A stretch of 64,000 nucleotides of DNA from Candidatus Desulforudis audaxviator MP104C. GTDB lineage: Bacteria > Bacillota > Desulfotomaculia > Desulfotomaculales > Desulforudaceae. This document shows positions 24,338-62,977 of this stretch, one piece after another (within the stretch, counting starts at the first letter, position 1; each line of letters opens with the position of its first letter). The position numbers were made by a program, and so were the translations under genes. The notes below the pieces were generated by a model. That model searched no databases. It had not been told where the DNA came from and saw only the letters and a list, made by a program, of their open reading frames with translations. The stretch spans positions 2,062,501-2,126,500 of the forward strand of contig NC_010424.1 of NCBI RefSeq assembly GCF_000018425.1, in the 5' to 3' direction.

Positions 24338-24592
24338 TTAGCCCCCGCCCAGTCTCCGGCGCACCGCTTCCTCGAGCTGTTCCAGGGTGACCTGGTCACC
24401 CAGAAGTTCCCCGTCGACGGCGATGTTCGGGGGCTTGGGCAGATCCCCGCCGCCCAGCATCAAAAAGCCCTTGTAAACAGTTTCCACTTCCACCTGTTCC
24501 CCGAATCTCTCTTTGACCTGACCGGCCAAGGCCGAGAGTCCCCTTCAACGGAGACCCGCCGGCCGGTTCGAGTAGACGGTGATGCGCACCAT
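24338..24592 (-). CDS. thioredoxin-like protein with in-frame UGA (candidate selenoprotein, Sec16)
   Basis: Read through one TGA (24545-24547), this is an 84-residue thioredoxin-like protein. It begins MVRITVYSNRPAGLR, then Sec/stop at codon 16, then RGLSALAGQVKERFG, and ends with a typical beta-strand/cis-Pro region, GGDLPKPPNIAVDGELL. The UGA falls where small thioredoxin-like proteins carry a redox Cys. The ATG at 24592 has a strong AAGGAGG site. Bases 11-22 after the UGA can form CGGC-CTTG-GCCG, a possible SECIS. The same cassette has a UGA-containing selD, so selenocysteine insertion is plausible. It resembles the family I recall as SaoT; unverified. The alternative is a nonsense-mutated gene. 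Confidence 0.65.
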
Positions 24593-24662
24593 ATTGAACA
24601 CCTCCTTAAAGAAATACTCGAACGTAAAACCGATCCGGAGACCAACGACCATCCCCGGGGAG

Positions 24663-24684
24663 AAAAGGGGCCTGGCCCCTTTTT
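24663..24684 (-). terminator. terminator after the membrane iron-sulfur gene
   Basis: A near-perfect palindrome, AAAAGGGGC-CAG-GCCCCTTTT on the minus strand, lies 10 bases after the stop of the 24693-25793 gene. Its symmetry makes it potentially bidirectional. The thioredoxin-like gene downstream has its own ribosome site about 60 bases further on. Confidence 0.7.
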
Positions 24685-24692
24685 CCGGGCGT

Positions 24693-25793
24693 TTACTGGC
24701 GGAAGAAGATTCCGCGCGCCTTCCGGGCCACCACGCCGACCGCCAGGTACGTGGGGCAGAAACCGAAAAGCCCGGTGGCGAAGAAGGCCAGCCCCAAGTA
24801 GCCCCACGGCGCACCCGGGTCCAGGAAGATCAGGCCGGCCACGGTGAGCCCGCCGGCCATCCGGACCAGCCGCTCCCGCGACCCCAGGTTGTACCCGCGA
24901 ATGGTGTCCCGAATGTCGTGGATACTGAGCACCCCCTGCGGGCAAACGTTGACGCAACGGCCGCACCCCATACATTCCGTCGTGCGCAGCACCCCCTTCT
25001 CCCGGATCAGCCTCCGGACCGGCACACCCATGTCGCAGTTCTGCTCACACAGACCGCACTCCCGGCACCGGCCGACATCGGCCTTGATCTTATAGAAGCC
25101 GGCCACGTTGAGCACGCCCCAGGTGGCCGCCCAGGGACAGGCCCAGCGGCAAAAGCTGCGGTGACCGGTGAACGGGATGATTAAAAAGCTCGCGTAGTAG
25201 CCGATCAGAATCAGGTCGTACATCGTGCGGCCGAACCGTTCATAGGCGTGCACCGGGTCCACCAGCATATAGACAAAATAGGCCCACACCACCGCAAAGG
25301 GCAGCCATTTCAGGTGCCGCCAGCGCCACCAGAAGTCGCCTTTCAGGGTGGCGTCCCGGAAGGCGAAACCCACCGTTTCCCGGCTGAACACGCAGGGGCA
25401 GTTCCAGCCGCAGTCCGCGCGTTTGCCGACCAGGGCCACCATAATGAAAAGGATGAGAAAGGGCAGGGCGCCAACCATGTGGACGGCCAGGGTGAACTCG
25501 GCCTCGGTGCCGTCGAGAAGCGGCATGCGCGGGTAAAATATCGGGATGAAGACCCAGTACAGGAAAAACAGCCCCACCATCACCTTGACCCGCAGCCGCT
25601 GGTAGGCGTCGCGCTCGGTCCGCAGCCGCCAGACGGCGAAGGCCGGAATCAGGTAAAGCTCCGGACTGCCGTTCAGTTTCACCACCGACCCGCCCACTTC
25701 GACATAAATGGGATACAGGAAGCTCGAGGCCAGCCAGGCCAGGGCAATCGCGCTCGCTATTTTCGCCGGGGTGATTCTTTTCGCAGAACCCAT
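24693..25793 (-). CDS. NapH-like membrane 4Fe-4S protein with DUF2892-like C-terminus
   Basis: A 366-residue membrane protein with about six helices. Cys-rich loops CGWNCPCVFSRET (about 124) and FCRWACPWAA (about 212) match NapH/RdxA-type proteins. A cytosolic two-cluster ferredoxin region follows: CRECGLCEQNCDMG and CMGCGRCVNVCPQG. The end, ATGLFGFCPTYLAVGV, looks like the DUF2892 membrane motif. The ATG at 25793 is chosen because the 31 upstream codons lack features. It probably passes electrons across or along the membrane for the neighbouring radical SAM/methyltransferase system. It resembles the family I recall as TsoY; here it contains only Cys. Confidence 0.8.
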   Translation of the reverse strand: MGSAKRITPAKIASAIALAWLASSFLYPIYVEVGGSVVKLNGSPELYLIPAFAVWRLRTERDAYQRLRVKVMVGLFFLYWVFIPIFYPRMPLLDGTEAEFTLAVHMVGALPFLILFIMVALVGKRADCGWNCPCVFSRETVGFAFRDATLKGDFWWRWRHLKWLPFAVVWAYFVYMLVDPVHAYERFGRTMYDLILIGYYASFLIIPFTGHRSFCRWACPWAATWGVLNVAGFYKIKADVGRCRECGLCEQNCDMGVPVRRLIREKGVLRTTECMGCGRCVNVCPQGVLSIHDIRDTIRGYNLGSRERLVRMAGGLTVAGLIFLDPGAPWGYLGLAFFATGLFGFCPTYLAVGVVARKARGIFFRQ

Positions 25794-25901
25794 CTTTTCA
25801 GCGCCCCCTTGGACCACAGGTTTAGCGGAAATGCCGTCTGTTGGAATACTAGGCGCTTTGCCGCAAACATCTACGCAAAATGGCAAACTGGTTGAGCCAG
25901 G

Positions 25902-26687
25902 TTAGGGCTTGCTCCCAGTGATGAGGGTATAGCCGAGCACCCCGTCACGCACCAGTTCCTCGGCCTGGTGCAGGAGCACCTTGCCGCGCTTGAGGTCCAG
26001 GCCTTTCAAGTCGAGCTTGCCCACGGCCTGAGCCAGTTCGGCGAGGAGCAGCCGCTGCCGGATTTGGCCGGCCAGCGCCAGCAGCGCCTCCGGATGGTCG
26101 GTTGCGGTCAGGCCGGTGAACCCCGCATGGGCCAGGACCGCCCGGTATCCGTCAACAGTGAGGGCGTCGGCGATGCAGGCCGCCCGGAAGAGCAGCCCCT
26201 TCATCTCTTCGGGCAGCCGGTCCCGGTCCACCACCATATCGGTCAACCCGACACGCCCCCCGGCGGCAAGCACCCGGAACATCTCCCGGGCCGCCGTTTC
26301 CTTGTCCGGGAAGAGACAGAAAGAGCACTCGGAAATCACCGCGGTGCAGGCACCGTCTTCCAGGGGCAGGCGCTCGGCGTCCCCCTGCCGGAATTCCACC
26401 CGGTCGGTCAGCCCCGCGTCGGCCGCGTGCCGGCGCGCCTGTTCCAGGTTCTCCGCGCCCAGGTCGACCCCCAACACCCGGCAGCCGAAAACGCCCGCCA
26501 GAAACACGGCGCTGGTGCCCGTGCCGCAGGCCGCGTCGAGCAAAAAGTCTCCCGGCCCCAGGGCCAGGGCCTCTCCCAGCCGCCGGGTCAGTTCGAGCCC
26601 CCCGGGATGAAAGCTCCGGCCCAGGAGCAGGCGGACGACATCGTTCTGGTAGAAATCAACGCAGGCACACTTTAAGTCCTCATTCAC
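25902..26687 (-). CDS. class I SAM-dependent methyltransferase of the selenoprotein-linked cassette
   Basis: A 261-residue methyltransferase. The SAM-binding motif I is LLDAACGTGTSAVFLAGVFG near residue 48, followed by GVDLGAENLEQARR and the acidic loop QGDAERLPLEDG. The region ISECSFCLFPDKETAAREMF carries two Cys where metalloid methyltransferases have substrate thiols, and CACVDFYQ at the N-terminus adds two more. A GTG start four bases after the radical SAM gene suggests coupling. The context suggests methylation of a metal(loid) or of a product of the radical SAM enzyme; the substrate is unknown. Confidence 0.82.
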   Translation of the reverse strand: MNEDLKCACVDFYQNDVVRLLLGRSFHPGGLELTRRLGEALALGPGDFLLDAACGTGTSAVFLAGVFGCRVLGVDLGAENLEQARRHAADAGLTDRVEFRQGDAERLPLEDGACTAVISECSFCLFPDKETAAREMFRVLAAGGRVGLTDMVVDRDRLPEEMKGLLFRAACIADALTVDGYRAVLAHAGFTGLTATDHPEALLALAGQIRQRLLLAELAQAVGKLDLKGLDLKRGKVLLHQAEELVRDGVLGYTLITGSKP

Positions 26688-26690
26688 CGG

Positions 26691-28052
26691 TCAACTACCT
26701 CGCTTCAACACGTTGTACACACAAAAGGGCACAAGCCCACCGTCCGGTAAGAGCTGGTGAACGCAACATTTCCGCGCCCGTTTGAGTTCGAAATTGTGGA
26801 CGTCCATAAAGGCGTGCACCCCGATCATGGTGATCTGGTCGCGGAGCGCTTCAAGGTCCTCCAGCGAAATCCCACAGCAGGAGGCCAGGCTTTTCAGGGA
26901 TTCGTCCGTCCCGGGCACGGCCCCGGCCGACCAAAGTTCTTCCAGGGAAGTCTGGGTCAGGGGAGAAAGGTCAGTGATGATCCGGTTCTTGAAGTAGTCC
27001 AGGTAGTCGTCCACGTTCACCAGCCGGGGCGCCGTGGTCAGCCGCTCGCCCCCGGTATACACGTAGGTAAGGGCGAAACAGGTCGGGTAGGGGCAAGGCA
27101 CCGGCACGAAATCCGCCCGGGTCAGTTCGCCTTCGGTCTGTCGCTCCAACCCTTTCAGAATGTCGGGAAGAGTGATCCGGTTCAGCGGGTCGAACTCCAG
27201 CCGGTGGCGCCCGATGTGGGCCACCGGCTGGAACATCAGGCCGCGGATGCGGGGGTTTTGCAGCGCGAAGCGGACGAGGTCGCCCAGCTCACCGTCGTTC
27301 ACCCCCGGGACCACGGTGGCCGAAAGGACAATGGGAATCCCGCAGTCACTGAGGCGCTCCACGGCCAAGAGCTTGTCGGCCAGAAGATCGGCCCCCCGGA
27401 TCCGCCGGTAGACAACCGCCGACAGCCCGTCGAACTGCAGGTACACCGACGGCCGGAACTCGGCCAGGCGCGCCAGGAAGGCATCGTCCCGGGCGATGCG
27501 CAGGCCGTTGGTGTTCAGTTGCACCAGCCGGATGCCCTTGGCCCGGGCCAGCGCCAACAGCTCGAAGAGTTCCGGGTGCAGCGTCGGCTCGCCCCCGCTG
27601 AACTGGAGCACGTCCGGGTTCCCCTCGCACTCCCGGTACACATCCAGCAGCCGCGCCACCTGCTCCGGGGCCAGAAAGCCGGAACCCCCGGCGTCGGCCA
27701 GGCAGGCCGGGCACTTCAGGTCGCACGCCTGTGTCACGTCGATGATCGCCAGGCAGGTGTGCTGCTGGTGGTCCGGGCAAAGGCCGCAGTCGTGCGGGCA
27801 GCCGCGCTCAACCCGGGTGGAAAAGCGGCGGGGGAGGGTGCCGGGCTTATTGTATTTCAGGCTGTACCGGTAGTGATCGATATCACTCGAGACCAGCGCC
27901 TCGGAATGGCCGTGCTCGGGGCACCACTTGCGCAGGTAAACCCGCCGGCCCCGGACCAGCACGTCGGCGTGTACCAGGCCCCGGCACTCCGGGCAAAGGC
28001 TCTGACCTACTTCCAAAAAGATGCTGTCACGTTCGCGGCTGCCGCCGGCCAT
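26691..28052 (-). CDS. radical SAM protein with N-terminal zinc-ribbon-like region
   Basis: 453 residues from the ATG at 28052 (GGAGG seven bases upstream). The radical SAM cluster motif is CDLKCPACLADAGGSG near residue 112, preceded by CPHDCGLCPDH. An N-terminal Cys region reads SLCPECRGLV and WCPEHGHSE. FSGGEPTLHPELFEL is the SAM-binding GGE motif. The C-terminus has more cysteines (SCCGISLED, KCCVHQLLPDGGLVPFC). The layout is like radical SAM methylases of the MJ0619/tetraether-synthase-like group and like TrsS, which can be a selenoprotein; here Cys is used. It lies 23 bases after selD and four before the methyltransferase gene. Confidence 0.85.
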   Translation of the reverse strand: MAGGSRERDSIFLEVGQSLCPECRGLVHADVLVRGRRVYLRKWCPEHGHSEALVSSDIDHYRYSLKYNKPGTLPRRFSTRVERGCPHDCGLCPDHQQHTCLAIIDVTQACDLKCPACLADAGGSGFLAPEQVARLLDVYRECEGNPDVLQFSGGEPTLHPELFELLALARAKGIRLVQLNTNGLRIARDDAFLARLAEFRPSVYLQFDGLSAVVYRRIRGADLLADKLLAVERLSDCGIPIVLSATVVPGVNDGELGDLVRFALQNPRIRGLMFQPVAHIGRHRLEFDPLNRITLPDILKGLERQTEGELTRADFVPVPCPYPTCFALTYVYTGGERLTTAPRLVNVDDYLDYFKNRIITDLSPLTQTSLEELWSAGAVPGTDESLKSLASCCGISLEDLEALRDQITMIGVHAFMDVHNFELKRARKCCVHQLLPDGGLVPFCVYNVLKRGS

Positions 28053-28075
28053 CTCGATCCCTCCGGACAAGTCGG

Positions 28076-29125
28076 CTAGGAAAACACATTGAACGAGCTT
28101 GGATCTCGTACCAGTCTGCCGATCACGGCGGACTCCTCGGCCCCTGCAGCACCGCGCAAGGCGGCCAGGAGCGCATCCAGTTTGTCCGGCGCGACCGCCA
28201 TGAGCAGCCCGCCGGAAGTCTGGGGATCGCACAAGACCAGCCGCATTTCCTCGGAAAGCGAAGGCTCCCACCGGTAGCGCTCGCGGGCGTAACGATAGTT
28301 GCCGTGGGCCCCGCCGGCCACCGCCCCGGCCCGTGCCAGTTCCAAAGCACCGGGAATCACCGGGACCCGGGAGGCCTCCACCTCGACCCCCACCCCGCTC
28401 GCCGCCGCCATTTCCCACAGGTGCCCCAAAAGCCCGAATCCGGTCACGTCCGTACAGGCGTGCACGCCGATCCGCAGCATGACTTCGGCCGCCTCCCGGT
28501 TAAGCGCGGTCATGTACCGCACCGCCAGGGTCTCCAGGCCGGCATCCACCAGCCGCCGGTCGATGCCGGTGGCGATAACACCGGTGCCCAGCGGCTTGGT
28601 GAGGACCAGGACATCACCGGCCCGCGCACCGCTTCGGAACACGAGGCGTTCGGGGTGAGCGAACCCCGTAACACATAAGCCGTACTTGGGGGCATGATCG
28701 GTGATGGAATGGCCCCCGGCGATGGATACACCGGCCTCGGCCGCCTTGTCCGCACCACCGCGCAAAATGTCTTCCAGGATCCCAAGGGGAATGCTCTGGT
28801 TGGGGAACCCCACGATATTGAGAGCGAACACCGGACGGCCGCCCATCGCGTAGATGTCGCTTAAGGCGTTGGCGGCCGCCACCTGCCCGAAGGTGTACGG
28901 ATCATCGACCACCGGAGTGATGTAGTCCACGGTCTGGATCAGGGCCAAGTCGGGGCCGACCCGGTACACGGCGGCGTCATCCTCCCGGCCGGCCAGGATG
29001 CGGGGATCAACCAGGGGCGGCAGGCAGCGCAGCAAGTGCGCCAGATCGGAATGCCCGATCTTGCACGCTCAGCCCGAACCCGGAGAGTAGGAAGTAAGCC
29101 GGAAGTTTGGGTAATTCCCGGTCAT
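28076..29125 (-). CDS. selD: selenide, water dikinase SelD, selenocysteine-containing
   Basis: SelD makes selenophosphate from selenide and ATP, the selenium donor for Sec-tRNA. The true start is the ATG at 29125 (GGAGAAC site). It gives 349 residues if the TGA at 29069-29071 is read as selenocysteine, Sec19, in the motif GSG-U-ACKIG, where other SelDs carry the catalytic Cys or Sec followed by the essential Lys. A perfect 7-bp hairpin (29043-29061) begins seven bases after the UGA, as expected for a bacterial SECIS. Body motifs include VDYITPVVDDPYTFGQVAAA, GGHSITD and DVTGFGLLGH. Without readthrough only a truncated protein would be made. Confidence 0.93.
29043..29061 (-). promoter_or_regulatory. 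SECIS-like hairpin in selD
   Basis: On the minus strand AGATCGG-GCATT-CCGATCT, a perfect 7-bp stem with a five-base loop starting with G, lies seven bases downstream of the in-frame UGA. Position and size fit SelB-binding elements. Confidence 0.75.
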
Positions 29126-29157
29126 GGCGTGTTCTCCGTTCAAAGGTTGTTGCCATC

Positions 29158-29187
29158 AGTGTACCACGGGAGTTATTATTATTCCAA
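29158..29187 (-). promoter_or_regulatory. promoter of selD and the downstream cassette
   Basis: Minus strand TTGGAA (29182-29187), 18-bp spacer, TACACT (29158-29163), about 35 bases before the selD start. The -35 touches the palindromes at 29187-29212. Confidence 0.55.
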
Positions 29188-29212
29188 TGCATAGTTTGCA
29201 TATGTTCTATGC
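29187..29212. promoter_or_regulatory. overlapping palindromes, likely LysR operator
   Basis: Two perfect 5-bp dyads with 5-base centres overlap: ATGCA-TAGTT-TGCAT (29187-29201) and GCATA-TGTTC-TATGC (29198-29212). They lie between divergent selD and the LysR gene and abut the selD -35, the usual place for a LysR activator site. Confidence 0.65.
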
Positions 29213-29235: not shown

Positions 29236-30129
29236 ATGATAACCGACATTCCCTTGTCGCAACTGCGCGTTTTCCACGCGGTCGCCCGGCACCTTAGTTA
29301 CTCGCGGGCCGCAGAGGAACTGGCCCTGAGCCAGCCCGCGGTATCCCGGCAGATTAGCAACCTGGAGGGTCTCCTGGGCTTGCGCCTGTTTGACCGGCGG
29401 GGGCGCCGGGTGCAGCTCACCGACGCTGGCCGGAGCCTCTATGAATACGCCGACCAGATCGTGCACCTGGCCGGTGAGGCCCGGCGGGCGATGGACGGGC
29501 TACGCAACCTCGAACGAGGGCAGGTGCGCCTGGGCTTGGCCGCCTCCGCGGCCGGACATGCCCTTCGTTCGACGTTGAAACAGTTTGGGGCGTTTTATCC
29601 GGAAATCGAAGTGCGGTTGAAGGTGGCCCCGAGCAGGCGCATCCAGCAACTGCTCGCGGAAGGAGCACTGGACCTGGCGCTGGCCGGTCCGGACGTCTTA
29701 CCCGGACTGCACATTGAGTTTGTACTCAGCGACACTCTGATCCTGGTTTCGGCGTCGGATCACCCCTGGACTACGCAACCCCCGCCCGATTACGCCGCCT
29801 TGAACCGACAGATCCTCCTCTGGCCGCCGCGCGGTTCAGGCGTGCGTGAAGCAGCCGCTTCCTTTCTGCACGCACATGGCCTGCAGCCGGAGACGATAGA
29901 GGTGCCGGACTGGAGCGCCATCCGGAACCTGGCCGCGGCCGGGACCGGCCTCGCGTTCGTTCCCGCCGCGCCGGCCGCACCGGAACTGGAAACAGGCCGC
30001 CTGGTGCAGTACGGACCGGGGTGGACGTTCAGCTTTTCCCGCTGCCTGCTTTCGGCCAAAGACCGCCCCCTTTTCCCGGCGGCGCTGGCCTTCGCCAATT
30101 TTGCCCGCAAACATGAGACAAGCACTTGA
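29236..30129 (+). CDS. LysR-family transcriptional regulator
   Basis: A 297-residue LysR regulator. The N-terminal helix-turn-helix reads LRVFHAVARHLSYSRAAEEL then ALSQPAVSRQISNLEGLLG, and the effector domain starts near residue 90 (GQVRLGLAASAAGHALRSTL). ATG at 29236 follows GGAGG; 43 upstream codons are open but cross the promoter region. It is divergent from selD with overlapping palindromes between them, so it probably controls the selD-radical SAM-methyltransferase cassette and itself. The inducer is unknown. Confidence 0.9.
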   Translation: MITDIPLSQLRVFHAVARHLSYSRAAEELALSQPAVSRQISNLEGLLGLRLFDRRGRRVQLTDAGRSLYEYADQIVHLAGEARRAMDGLRNLERGQVRLGLAASAAGHALRSTLKQFGAFYPEIEVRLKVAPSRRIQQLLAEGALDLALAGPDVLPGLHIEFVLSDTLILVSASDHPWTTQPPPDYAALNRQILLWPPRGSGVREAAASFLHAHGLQPETIEVPDWSAIRNLAAAGTGLAFVPAAPAAPELETGRLVQYGPGWTFSFSRCLLSAKDRPLFPAALAFANFARKHETST

Positions 30130-40361: not shown

Positions 40362-40499
40362 CCCAGCATGCAAAATCCCGACATCTCCCGCCGTTTTGCG
40401 CATGCACATTCAAGGCAGGCGCACCGGTGAGAGCCCTTGGTTTTTCAAACACGCTGCTCCCTCGCCTCTCGACCGGAGGCAAATAAAGGAGCACTTGAC

Positions 40500-40655
40500 A
40501 AGCAGGCAGGTCTCCTGGCTTACGGTCATCGTCGCTACACCCGCCTTCCCGGGTTATCGGTGGCATCCTGGGGAGCGACTCATCGCTTACAGTAGCGGGA
40601 CTGCTCAGGAATTGCACCTGATTCCCTATTATCCCCTGGTTAGGGGCACCTGCTT
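40500..40655 (-). ncRNA. cobalamin (B12) riboswitch
   Basis: On the minus strand the conserved parts appear in order: AAGCAGGTGCCCC (P1/P2), AATAGGGAATCAGGTG, AATTCCTGAGCAGTCCCGCT then ACTGTAA, and GCCAGGAGACCTGCC with the closing CCTGCTT. P1 pairs AAGCAGG with CCTGCTT. It precedes metE, the B12-independent methionine synthase. Confidence 0.95.
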
Positions 40656-40676
40656 ATCCTTTATGTGCTAAGAGTC

Positions 40677-62567: not shown

Positions 62568-62977
62568 AGAACATCACTCCCTGAGAACATTCAAACCCCC
62601 GGGAGGGGGGTAAATCAAAAAAGCTAACCACCCATTCCCTCCGCTGGCATGACCCAGGTCAGGTTCCAAGGGTAAAGCGCGCGCACGCTTTTCTCAGCCC
62701 GTTTCCGGGCACCCCCATGGGTAACCGGTTTGGTCTTTATTCTCAGTCTAAGGCGTCAAATCCTGCACCGGCAAGATGAAGCGGCACCCTAAAAGTGCAT
62801 CCCGGGATTTACCGCCGCCGTTCCCCGTTGGCCAACAGTTCCGCGCCCTTGTTTATGTCTATTATAGCGCATTGCGTTATCCACGCCACTAAGAGCTGAG
62901 ACGCCCGTCAGAGCGCTATCCAGGAAAGCGCGGAACGGCTGGGGGAAAAACCTGATGAAGGCCTGTCCAAAGAGTCT
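62568..62977 (-). other. thi operon leader and gene-free stretch
   Basis: Holds the TPP riboswitch (62630-62722). Between it and the coding start a stem ACCCCC/GGGGGT near 62594-62612 could be the expression platform. 62723-62977 shows no supported gene. Confidence 0.6.
62630..62722 (-). ncRNA. TPP riboswitch (THI element)
   Basis: On the minus strand GGGGTGCCCGG, GGGCTGAGAAAAGC, ACCCTTGGAACCTGACCTGG and CATGCCAGCGGAGGGAA occur in order, closed by P1 ACCCAT with ATGGGT. It precedes the ThiD2-ThiE and thiC genes. Confidence 0.96.

What the first reader, a model, noticed from the sequence alone, without database searches (positions are those of the whole stretch)
24338..29212. Selenoprotein-linked radical SAM/methyltransferase/membrane Fe-S cassette
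One strand carries, in order, Sec-containing selD, a Cys-rich radical SAM protein, a Cys-bearing SAM methyltransferase, a NapH-like membrane iron-sulfur protein, and then a thioredoxin-like gene with an in-frame UGA. A LysR gene and palindromes sit at the divergent promoter. The first four genes are tightly spaced (4-108 bases). This looks like a complete pathway: radical SAM chemistry plus methyl transfer, electrons from the membrane protein, a selenothiol carrier, and a dedicated selenium supply. It resembles gene sets I recall from NCBI family names (TrsS, TrsM, TsoY, SaoT) proposed to act on organometals or metalloids; recall only. Coupling of selD and a LysR switch to it is the interesting local feature.
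Basis: partly seen in the sequence, partly recalled or inferred. Interest (0 to 1): 0.85.

Follow-up and report, generated by a model that had tools for sequence, protein, structure and literature searches.

The report
Selenium-linked radical SAM–methyltransferase operon
A deep-subsurface bacterium carries a five-gene operon, found in the same order in at least four other bacterial families, that joins its own selenium-supply gene and a small selenoprotein to a radical enzyme resembling the archaeal tetraether-lipid synthase and a methyltransferase that keeps the arsenic-binding cysteines of ArsM, so it probably makes or detoxifies an organo-metalloid compound.

Summary
On the minus strand, 29125-24338 encodes selD (with Sec), radical SAM, methyltransferase, NapH-like Fe-S membrane protein and a thioredoxin-fold selenoprotein, with a divergent LysR gene. 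The order is conserved at 52-70% identity in three other families; a fourth copy is cut by its contig end. NapH occurs in 7 of 113 genomes of the class, all 7 with the cassette radical SAM. UGA is conserved in all 19 small-protein relatives and followed by a covarying stem-loop. The selD is a second, separate SelD clade (100/100). The LysR operator matches at 3 or fewer mismatches only once in this genome. The methyltransferase keeps both catalytic As-binding cysteines of ArsM. NapH did not match TsoY. The small protein is nearest TsoC, not SaoT, below cut-off. The radical SAM-methyltransferase pair also occurs in Acidobacteriota and Chloroflexota (25 of 32 close homologues against 0 of 25 distant ones), sometimes in genomes without selD. 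I favour alkylation or detoxification of a soft metalloid such as arsenic (about 0.45). The substrate is inferred, not shown.

The parts
28076..29125 (-). selD2: selenide, water dikinase, Sec at UGA 29069-29071; second SelD of the genome, own clade
   Evidence: TIGR00476 376 bits over cut-off 125; two selD in this genome and most relatives; cassette SelDs form a 100/100 clade apart from housekeeping SelDs
26691..28052 (-). Tes-like radical SAM protein (rubredoxin-like Cys site, CX3CX2C, further Cys motifs)
   Evidence: Radical_SAM, Zn_ribbon_HMPTM; 7TOL 3e-80, Cys aligned; TM 0.79-0.81 to 7tol/7tom; tree
25902..26687 (-). ArsM/DVU_1556-like SAM methyltransferase with extra conserved Cys
   Evidence: both catalytic As-binding Cys of ArsM kept
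24693..25793 (-). NapH-like polytopic 4Fe-4S membrane protein
   Evidence: TIGR02163 71 bits, below cut-off 213; 7 of 113 genomes, all with the cassette radical SAM
24338..24592 (-). TsoC-like small thioredoxin-fold selenoprotein, motif YSNRPxGxxU, Sec at 24545-24547
   Evidence: NF045708 32.3 bits, cut-off 45; UGA in 19/19; thioredoxin fold, TM 0.74
24511..24531 (-). bSECIS-like stem-loop 16 nt after the UGA of the TsoC-like gene
   Evidence: 91.7% of cells paired, 10 cells changed on both sides, slid controls lower in cells paired
29186..29203 (-). Conserved LysR/selD2 operator core ATATGCAAACTATGCATT within a larger palindrome
   Evidence: one site in this genome at 3 or fewer mismatches; near-copies before selD2 in relatives; reversed control 0 in most genomes
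29236..30129 (+). Divergent LysR regulator, relative of NF040786 (selenium metabolism-associated LysR)
   Evidence: 149 bits, cut-off 250, best family; a homologue beside selD2 in G071 passes the cut-off at 265; kept in cassettes

Best explanation
A LysR-switched, selenium-equipped operon that alkylates, and so makes or detoxifies, a soft metalloid, arsenic being the likeliest. Shown: the operon and its conservation, Sec in SelD2 and in the small protein (by conserved UGA and hairpin), the dedicated operator, the Tes-like fold of the radical SAM, and the ArsM-type Cys pair in the methyltransferase. Inferred: (1) LysR senses the metalloid or selenium state and opens the promoter. (2) SelD2 supplies selenophosphate so that the selenoprotein can be made on demand. 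(3) NapH passes quinol electrons inward, and the thioredoxin-fold selenol keeps the substrate trivalent and reduced. (4) The ArsM-like enzyme methylates the trivalent metalloid held on its cysteines. (5) The Tes-like radical SAM makes a carbon radical that forms a carbon-metalloid or carbon-carbon bond, as ArsS and ArsL do beside ArsM in known organoarsenical pathways, with the difference that its scaffold resembles an enzyme that works on lipid chains.
For: Conserved order in seven genomes; NapH only where the cassette radical SAM is present. Sec supported by conserved UGA and covarying hairpin. SelD2 clade 100/100. Operator. Methyltransferase: the Cys equivalent to CmArsM C174 is kept in 21/21 and the C224-type in 20/21, with more Cys specific to the clade; in ArsM those two are needed for both methylation steps (PMC3877260). 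Radical SAM beside ArsM-like methyltransferase in 25 of 32 close homologues in two other phyla against 0 of 25 distant ones. Precedent: arsL-arsM and arsS-arsM make C-As bonds (PMC8552651). Hints of metal handling: true MerA and an ArsR-type gene in L047, an ArsP/SaoE-like permease overlapping the radical SAM in L042, a heavy-metal ATPase beside a LysR-selD2-NapH-like-selenoprotein core in G071.
Against: No arsenic gene (arsR, acr3, arsC) lies in the cassette. The third ArsM cysteine (C72 type) is absent. The DVU_1556 methyltransferases beside true TrsS share the Cys pair but sit in a molybdenum aldehyde-oxidoreductase cluster, so the pair need not mean arsenic. The metal-gene hints are single loci, not statistics. 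G035 has the radical SAM without the methyltransferase. No expression or chemical data exist.
Confidence: 0.45

Rival explanations
1. Membrane-lipid enzyme: the Tes-like protein joins or modifies lipid chains (membrane-spanning lipids) and the methyltransferase methylates the lipid; selenium genes protect the Fe-S enzymes.
For: Full-length similarity to archaeal Tes with its cysteine motifs; bacterial Tes homologues have been proposed to make brGDGTs (PMC8941075); more distant homologues lie beside fatty-acid synthase-like genes (clusters 12 and 13).
Against: No lipid gene in the cassette; the partner methyltransferase keeps metalloid-binding Cys; the distant Tes-like clade without a methyltransferase is separate; the named bacterial enzyme for this step is Mss (PMC13274423), whose relation to P0002 I did not test.
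Confidence: 0.15
2. Selenometabolite pathway: SelD2 supplies selenophosphate to a small molecule, as the selD-type gene of the selenoneine cluster does; the radical SAM and methyltransferase build a methylated organoselenium product.
For: A second, separate SelD clade inside the operon; a selD-linked cluster has revealed a selenometabolite before (PMC9814287).
Against: SelD2 keeps Sec and the full SelD family score, as expected for selenoprotein supply; LysR-selD2-selenoprotein units exist without the radical SAM; 6 of 18 other genomes with the radical SAM-methyltransferase pair have no selD found (several are MAGs).
Confidence: 0.17
3. Maturation of a cofactor or oxidoreductase, as the TrsS + DVU_1556 methyltransferase pair presumably does for the molybdenum aldehyde oxidoreductase.
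For: A similar two-enzyme module lies in that cluster.
Against: No client oxidoreductase lies in the cassette; the cassette radical SAM is outside the TrsS clade.
Confidence: 0.13
4. Chance or purely regulatory neighbours with unrelated functions.
For: G035 has the radical SAM alone; the two modules occur apart elsewhere.
Against: Order and strand kept across families with a single operator; NapH found only with the cassette.
Confidence: 0.03

Closest known systems
TrsS radical SAM (seleno)protein, NF045646, with DVU_1556 methyltransferase NF045667
   Same: Tes-like radical SAM next to an ArsM-like methyltransferase with the same Cys pair
   Different: Score 364.6 below cut-off 490; separate clade; true TrsS sits with Mo aldehyde oxidoreductase, C-GCAxxG-C-C protein, CoA ligase and NTP transferase, not with selD2/NapH/TsoC-like
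Tes / GDGT-MAS tetraether lipid synthase (7TOL, 7TOM)
   Same: Whole fold, rubredoxin-like N-terminal Cys, CX3CX2C, CC and PFC C-terminal motifs
   Different: 318.9 bits, cut-off 450; extra Cys at P0002 position 321; methyltransferase-linked operon
ArsM arsenite methyltransferase (NF008823)
   Same: Both catalytic As-binding Cys and surrounding motifs
   Different: 114.8 bits, cut-off 263; C72-type Cys missing; extra N-terminal CxC/CC and SEC(A/S)FC cysteines
arsQML arsinothricin cluster / ArsS-ArsM arsenosugar pair
   Same: Radical SAM gene beside ArsM making C-As bonds (PMC8552651)
   Different: Radical SAM of another family; As(III)-inducible and probably ArsR-controlled instead of LysR; no selenium genes reported
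TsoC (NF045708) of the three-selenoprotein operon
   Same: Small selenoprotein with Asn-x-Pro-x-Gly-x-x-U motif
   Different: 17-34 bits, cut-off 45, in all relatives tested; no TsoC over the cut-off in 113 genomes
Selenoneine sen cluster
   Same: A selD-type gene inside a metabolic operon
   Different: No glycosyltransferase (SenB-type) gene among the five; LysR-selD2 units without the enzymes exist

Membership tests
Selenoproteins (small protein and SelD2) | In-frame UGA conserved across relatives | tested here: met
   19/19 small proteins; SelD2
Selenoproteins (small protein and SelD2) | bSECIS stem-loop just after the UGA | tested here: met
   Covarying hairpin for the small protein; single-sequence folds only for selD
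TrsS (NF045646) | Score over curated cut-off 490 | tested here: not met
   364.6 bits
TrsS (NF045646) | Falls in the TrsS clade | tested here: not met
   TrsS and MjTes lie on the other side of a 100/99 branch
Tes tetraether synthase | Fold and Fe-S cysteines | tested here: met
Tes tetraether synthase | Curated cut-off 450 | tested here: not met
   318.9 bits
Tes tetraether synthase | Couples lipid chains | not testable with these tools
   needs enzyme assay or lipid analysis
ArsM | Catalytic As-binding Cys pair | tested here: met
ArsM | Curated cut-off 263 and third Cys (C72 type) | tested here: not met
   114.8 bits; HPGG in place of FGCG
ArsM | Methylates arsenic | not testable with these tools
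   needs enzyme assay
DVU_1556 methyltransferase | Cut-off 155 | tested here: not met
   128.3 bits
TsoC | Cut-off 45 | tested here: not met
   32.3 bits; relatives 17-34
SaoT / SAO system | Hit to the SaoT model | tested here: not met
   TsoC was the only family for P0005 at E 0.01
TsoY | Hit to NF047643 | tested here: not met
   not among the best 25 of 42 families for P0004
SelD | TIGR00476 cut-off 125 | tested here: met
   376.4 bits
Selenium-metabolism LysR NF040786 | Cut-off 250 | tested here: not met
   149.3 bits but best family; the G071 homologue reaches 265

The most novel reading that the evidence does not exclude
A third way of making biological carbon-metalloid bonds: an ArsM-like enzyme produces a methylated trivalent metalloid, and a Tes-type radical enzyme couples it to an unactivated sp3 carbon such as a lipid chain end, giving arsenolipid-like products, with electrons from quinol through NapH and a selenol carrier. 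The same pair in soil Acidobacteriota and Chloroflexota would mean that part of the 'bacterial Tes homologues' work on metalloids rather than on branched tetraether lipids.
Probability: 0.18. Interest if true: 0.9.

Novelty: new variant of a known kind. Interest (0 to 1): 0.62.

Why it matters
If right, a widespread but unread gene pair (Tes-like radical SAM plus ArsM-like methyltransferase) gains a testable function, and part of the bacterial 'Tes homologues' now linked to palaeoclimate lipids (brGDGTs) would have to be reassigned. The operon also shows a second selD under its own regulator dedicated to one selenoprotein pathway, which makes the question of why some bacteria keep two SelDs directly testable.

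Tried and rejected
TrsS, TsoC, TsoY and SaoT membership. A radical SAM-methyltransferase Sec read-through fusion: the UGA between them is not kept as Sec in relatives, so it is read as a stop. The Haft papers behind TrsS/TsoC/SaoT (PMC12013261, PMC9879109) are not in the library; only a 2026 review citing them was readable, so prior mention of this cassette cannot be excluded. Terminator scan of the cassette: no excess over shuffles. Arsenic or mercury neighbours in other phyla: only scattered cases, too few for statistics. A FAD disulfide oxidoreductase next to the pair in many soil loci is suggestive of electron supply only.

Full report
What is there. The window is G000:C1:2062501-2126500 of a one-contig genome of 2,349,476 bp. 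The size matches my recollection of Candidatus Desulforudis audaxviator; the handles themselves are unnamed. Gaps on the minus strand are 23, 3, 108 and 100 nt. SelD reads SYSPGSGUACK, and the last gene reads YSNRPAGLRU.

Conservation. Searching 113 genomes of the class with the radical SAM gave close homologues (54% identity or more) in eight genomes including this one, and a distant group at 34-44%. In seven of the eight the neighbourhood is the same: radical SAM, methyltransferase, NapH and small selenoprotein, preceded by selD and a divergent LysR in six (in the seventh, G071, the contig stops there). This spans genomes in families f1, f8, f12, f14 and f18, mostly at 52-70% identity outside the genus; LysR is less conserved, 36-43%. 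NapH was found in exactly those seven genomes. The eighth, G035, has the radical SAM alone.

Selenium. UGA stands at the same place in all 19 small-protein relatives. A hairpin 16 nt downstream pairs in 91.7% of cells, with compensatory U-A/C-G/A-U changes, and falls when slid. AlphaFold gives a thioredoxin fold (pLDDT 85; TM 0.74). Seven of the eight genomes searched carry two selD genes; the eighth is 70% complete. The cassette SelDs and other LysR-linked SelDs form one clade (100/100), apart from the housekeeping SelD of the same genomes. Other genomes have LysR and selD2 with the small selenoprotein but no cassette radical SAM beside them: G071 (with a NapH-like gene and beside a heavy-metal ATPase), G067 (beside chromate-type transporters), G022, and a decayed copy in G044.

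Switch. The core ATATGCAAACTATGCATT lies between selD2 and LysR, once in the genome at 3 or fewer mismatches, and near-copies (0-2 mismatches) lie in front of selD2 in G046, G047, G059, G067, G071, G073, G035 and G044. The reversed control pattern gives no hit in most of these genomes.

Radical SAM. It scores 364.6 bits on TrsS (cut-off 490) and 318.9 on Tes (cut-off 450). Its only PDB sequence match is Tes 7TOL, with the cysteine motifs aligned, and the model superposes at TM 0.79-0.81. In the tree the cassette clade is 100/99, while TrsS and MjTes lie together on another branch. The tool warned of long branches, MjTes among them, so the exact order of the deeper groups is unsure. True TrsS loci are molybdenum aldehyde-oxidoreductase clusters.

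Methyltransferase. Alignment with true ArsM shows the two catalytic As-binding cysteines (CmArsM C174 and C224; PMC3877260) kept in the whole group, including the TrsS-linked enzymes (the C224 type is missing in one of 21), plus clade-specific cysteines, but not the C72-type cysteine. Loss of C72 in CmArsM abolishes methylation of inorganic As(III) but not of MAs(III) (PMC3877260), so a methylated or otherwise preligated substrate is plausible. That is inference.

Beyond this class. In Acidobacteriota and Chloroflexota the same radical SAM type (at least 44% identity) has the methyltransferase directly downstream on the same strand in 25 of 32 loci with room, against 0 of 25 for more distant Tes-like proteins (the loci are related, so the P value is only a guide). 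Six of 18 such genomes have no selD found; several are MAGs and may be incomplete. The pair is therefore separable from its selenium partners. Zeng et al. (PMC8941075) proposed that bacterial Tes homologues make brGDGTs; the pairing suggests that this subset may not.

Mechanism. Radical SAM next to ArsM is the arrangement of two known organoarsenical pathways (PMC8552651). I therefore favour metalloid alkylation or detoxification, with NapH and the selenol as reductants. Shown: anatomy, conservation, Sec, operator, predicted fold, cysteines. Inferred: substrate, electron path, signal, product. No arsenic gene is in the cassette, which keeps the confidence at about 0.45. Lipid, selenometabolite and cofactor-maturation rivals remain open.

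Novelty. Selenoprotein-linked radical SAM and methyltransferase neighbourhoods are a known theme (review PMC13188914). This operon, with its own selD clade, private LysR operator, Tes-like enzyme outside TrsS and TsoC-like protein below cut-off, is a new variant as far as I could check. The primary papers were not readable here.

Noticed in passing
G000:C1:1303694-1303903 (L003:8695-8904): A second TsoC-like gene with UGA stands alone beside a metallophosphoesterase. Its relatives in G043-G045, G047, G070 and G073 keep UGA in a conserved locus, but this genome's copy appears frameshifted near its end.
   Followed up: partly
L148:5017-6263 (G044): Sister-genus remnant of the operon: LysR fragment, broken selD2 and the small selenoprotein with a near-copy of the operator; radical SAM, methyltransferase and NapH missing.
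   Followed up: partly
L045:11319-11801 and beyond: Directly after the methyltransferase an ORF matches the GrdB selenoprotein family and ends at a stop codon followed by PFC, which may be a UxxC selenocysteine site; a homologue lies in L061.
   Followed up: partly
L042:10353-12610: In an Omnitrophota MAG the radical SAM is followed by an ArsP/SaoE-like permease and a putative Se/S carrier protein.
   Followed up: no
L045, L046, L047, L048, L049, L051, L053, L056, L059, L060, L061: A MerA-like FAD disulfide oxidoreductase lies near the radical SAM-methyltransferase pair in many Acidobacteriota and Chloroflexota loci, possibly the electron supply in place of NapH and the selenoprotein.
   Followed up: partly
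window 40488-40668 (-) and 62619-62726 (-): Cobalamin and TPP riboswitches by Rfam.
   Followed up: no
L064-L066, L068, L077: More distant Tes-like radical SAM genes lie near fatty-acid synthase-like genes, perhaps lipid-acting members.
   Followed up: no
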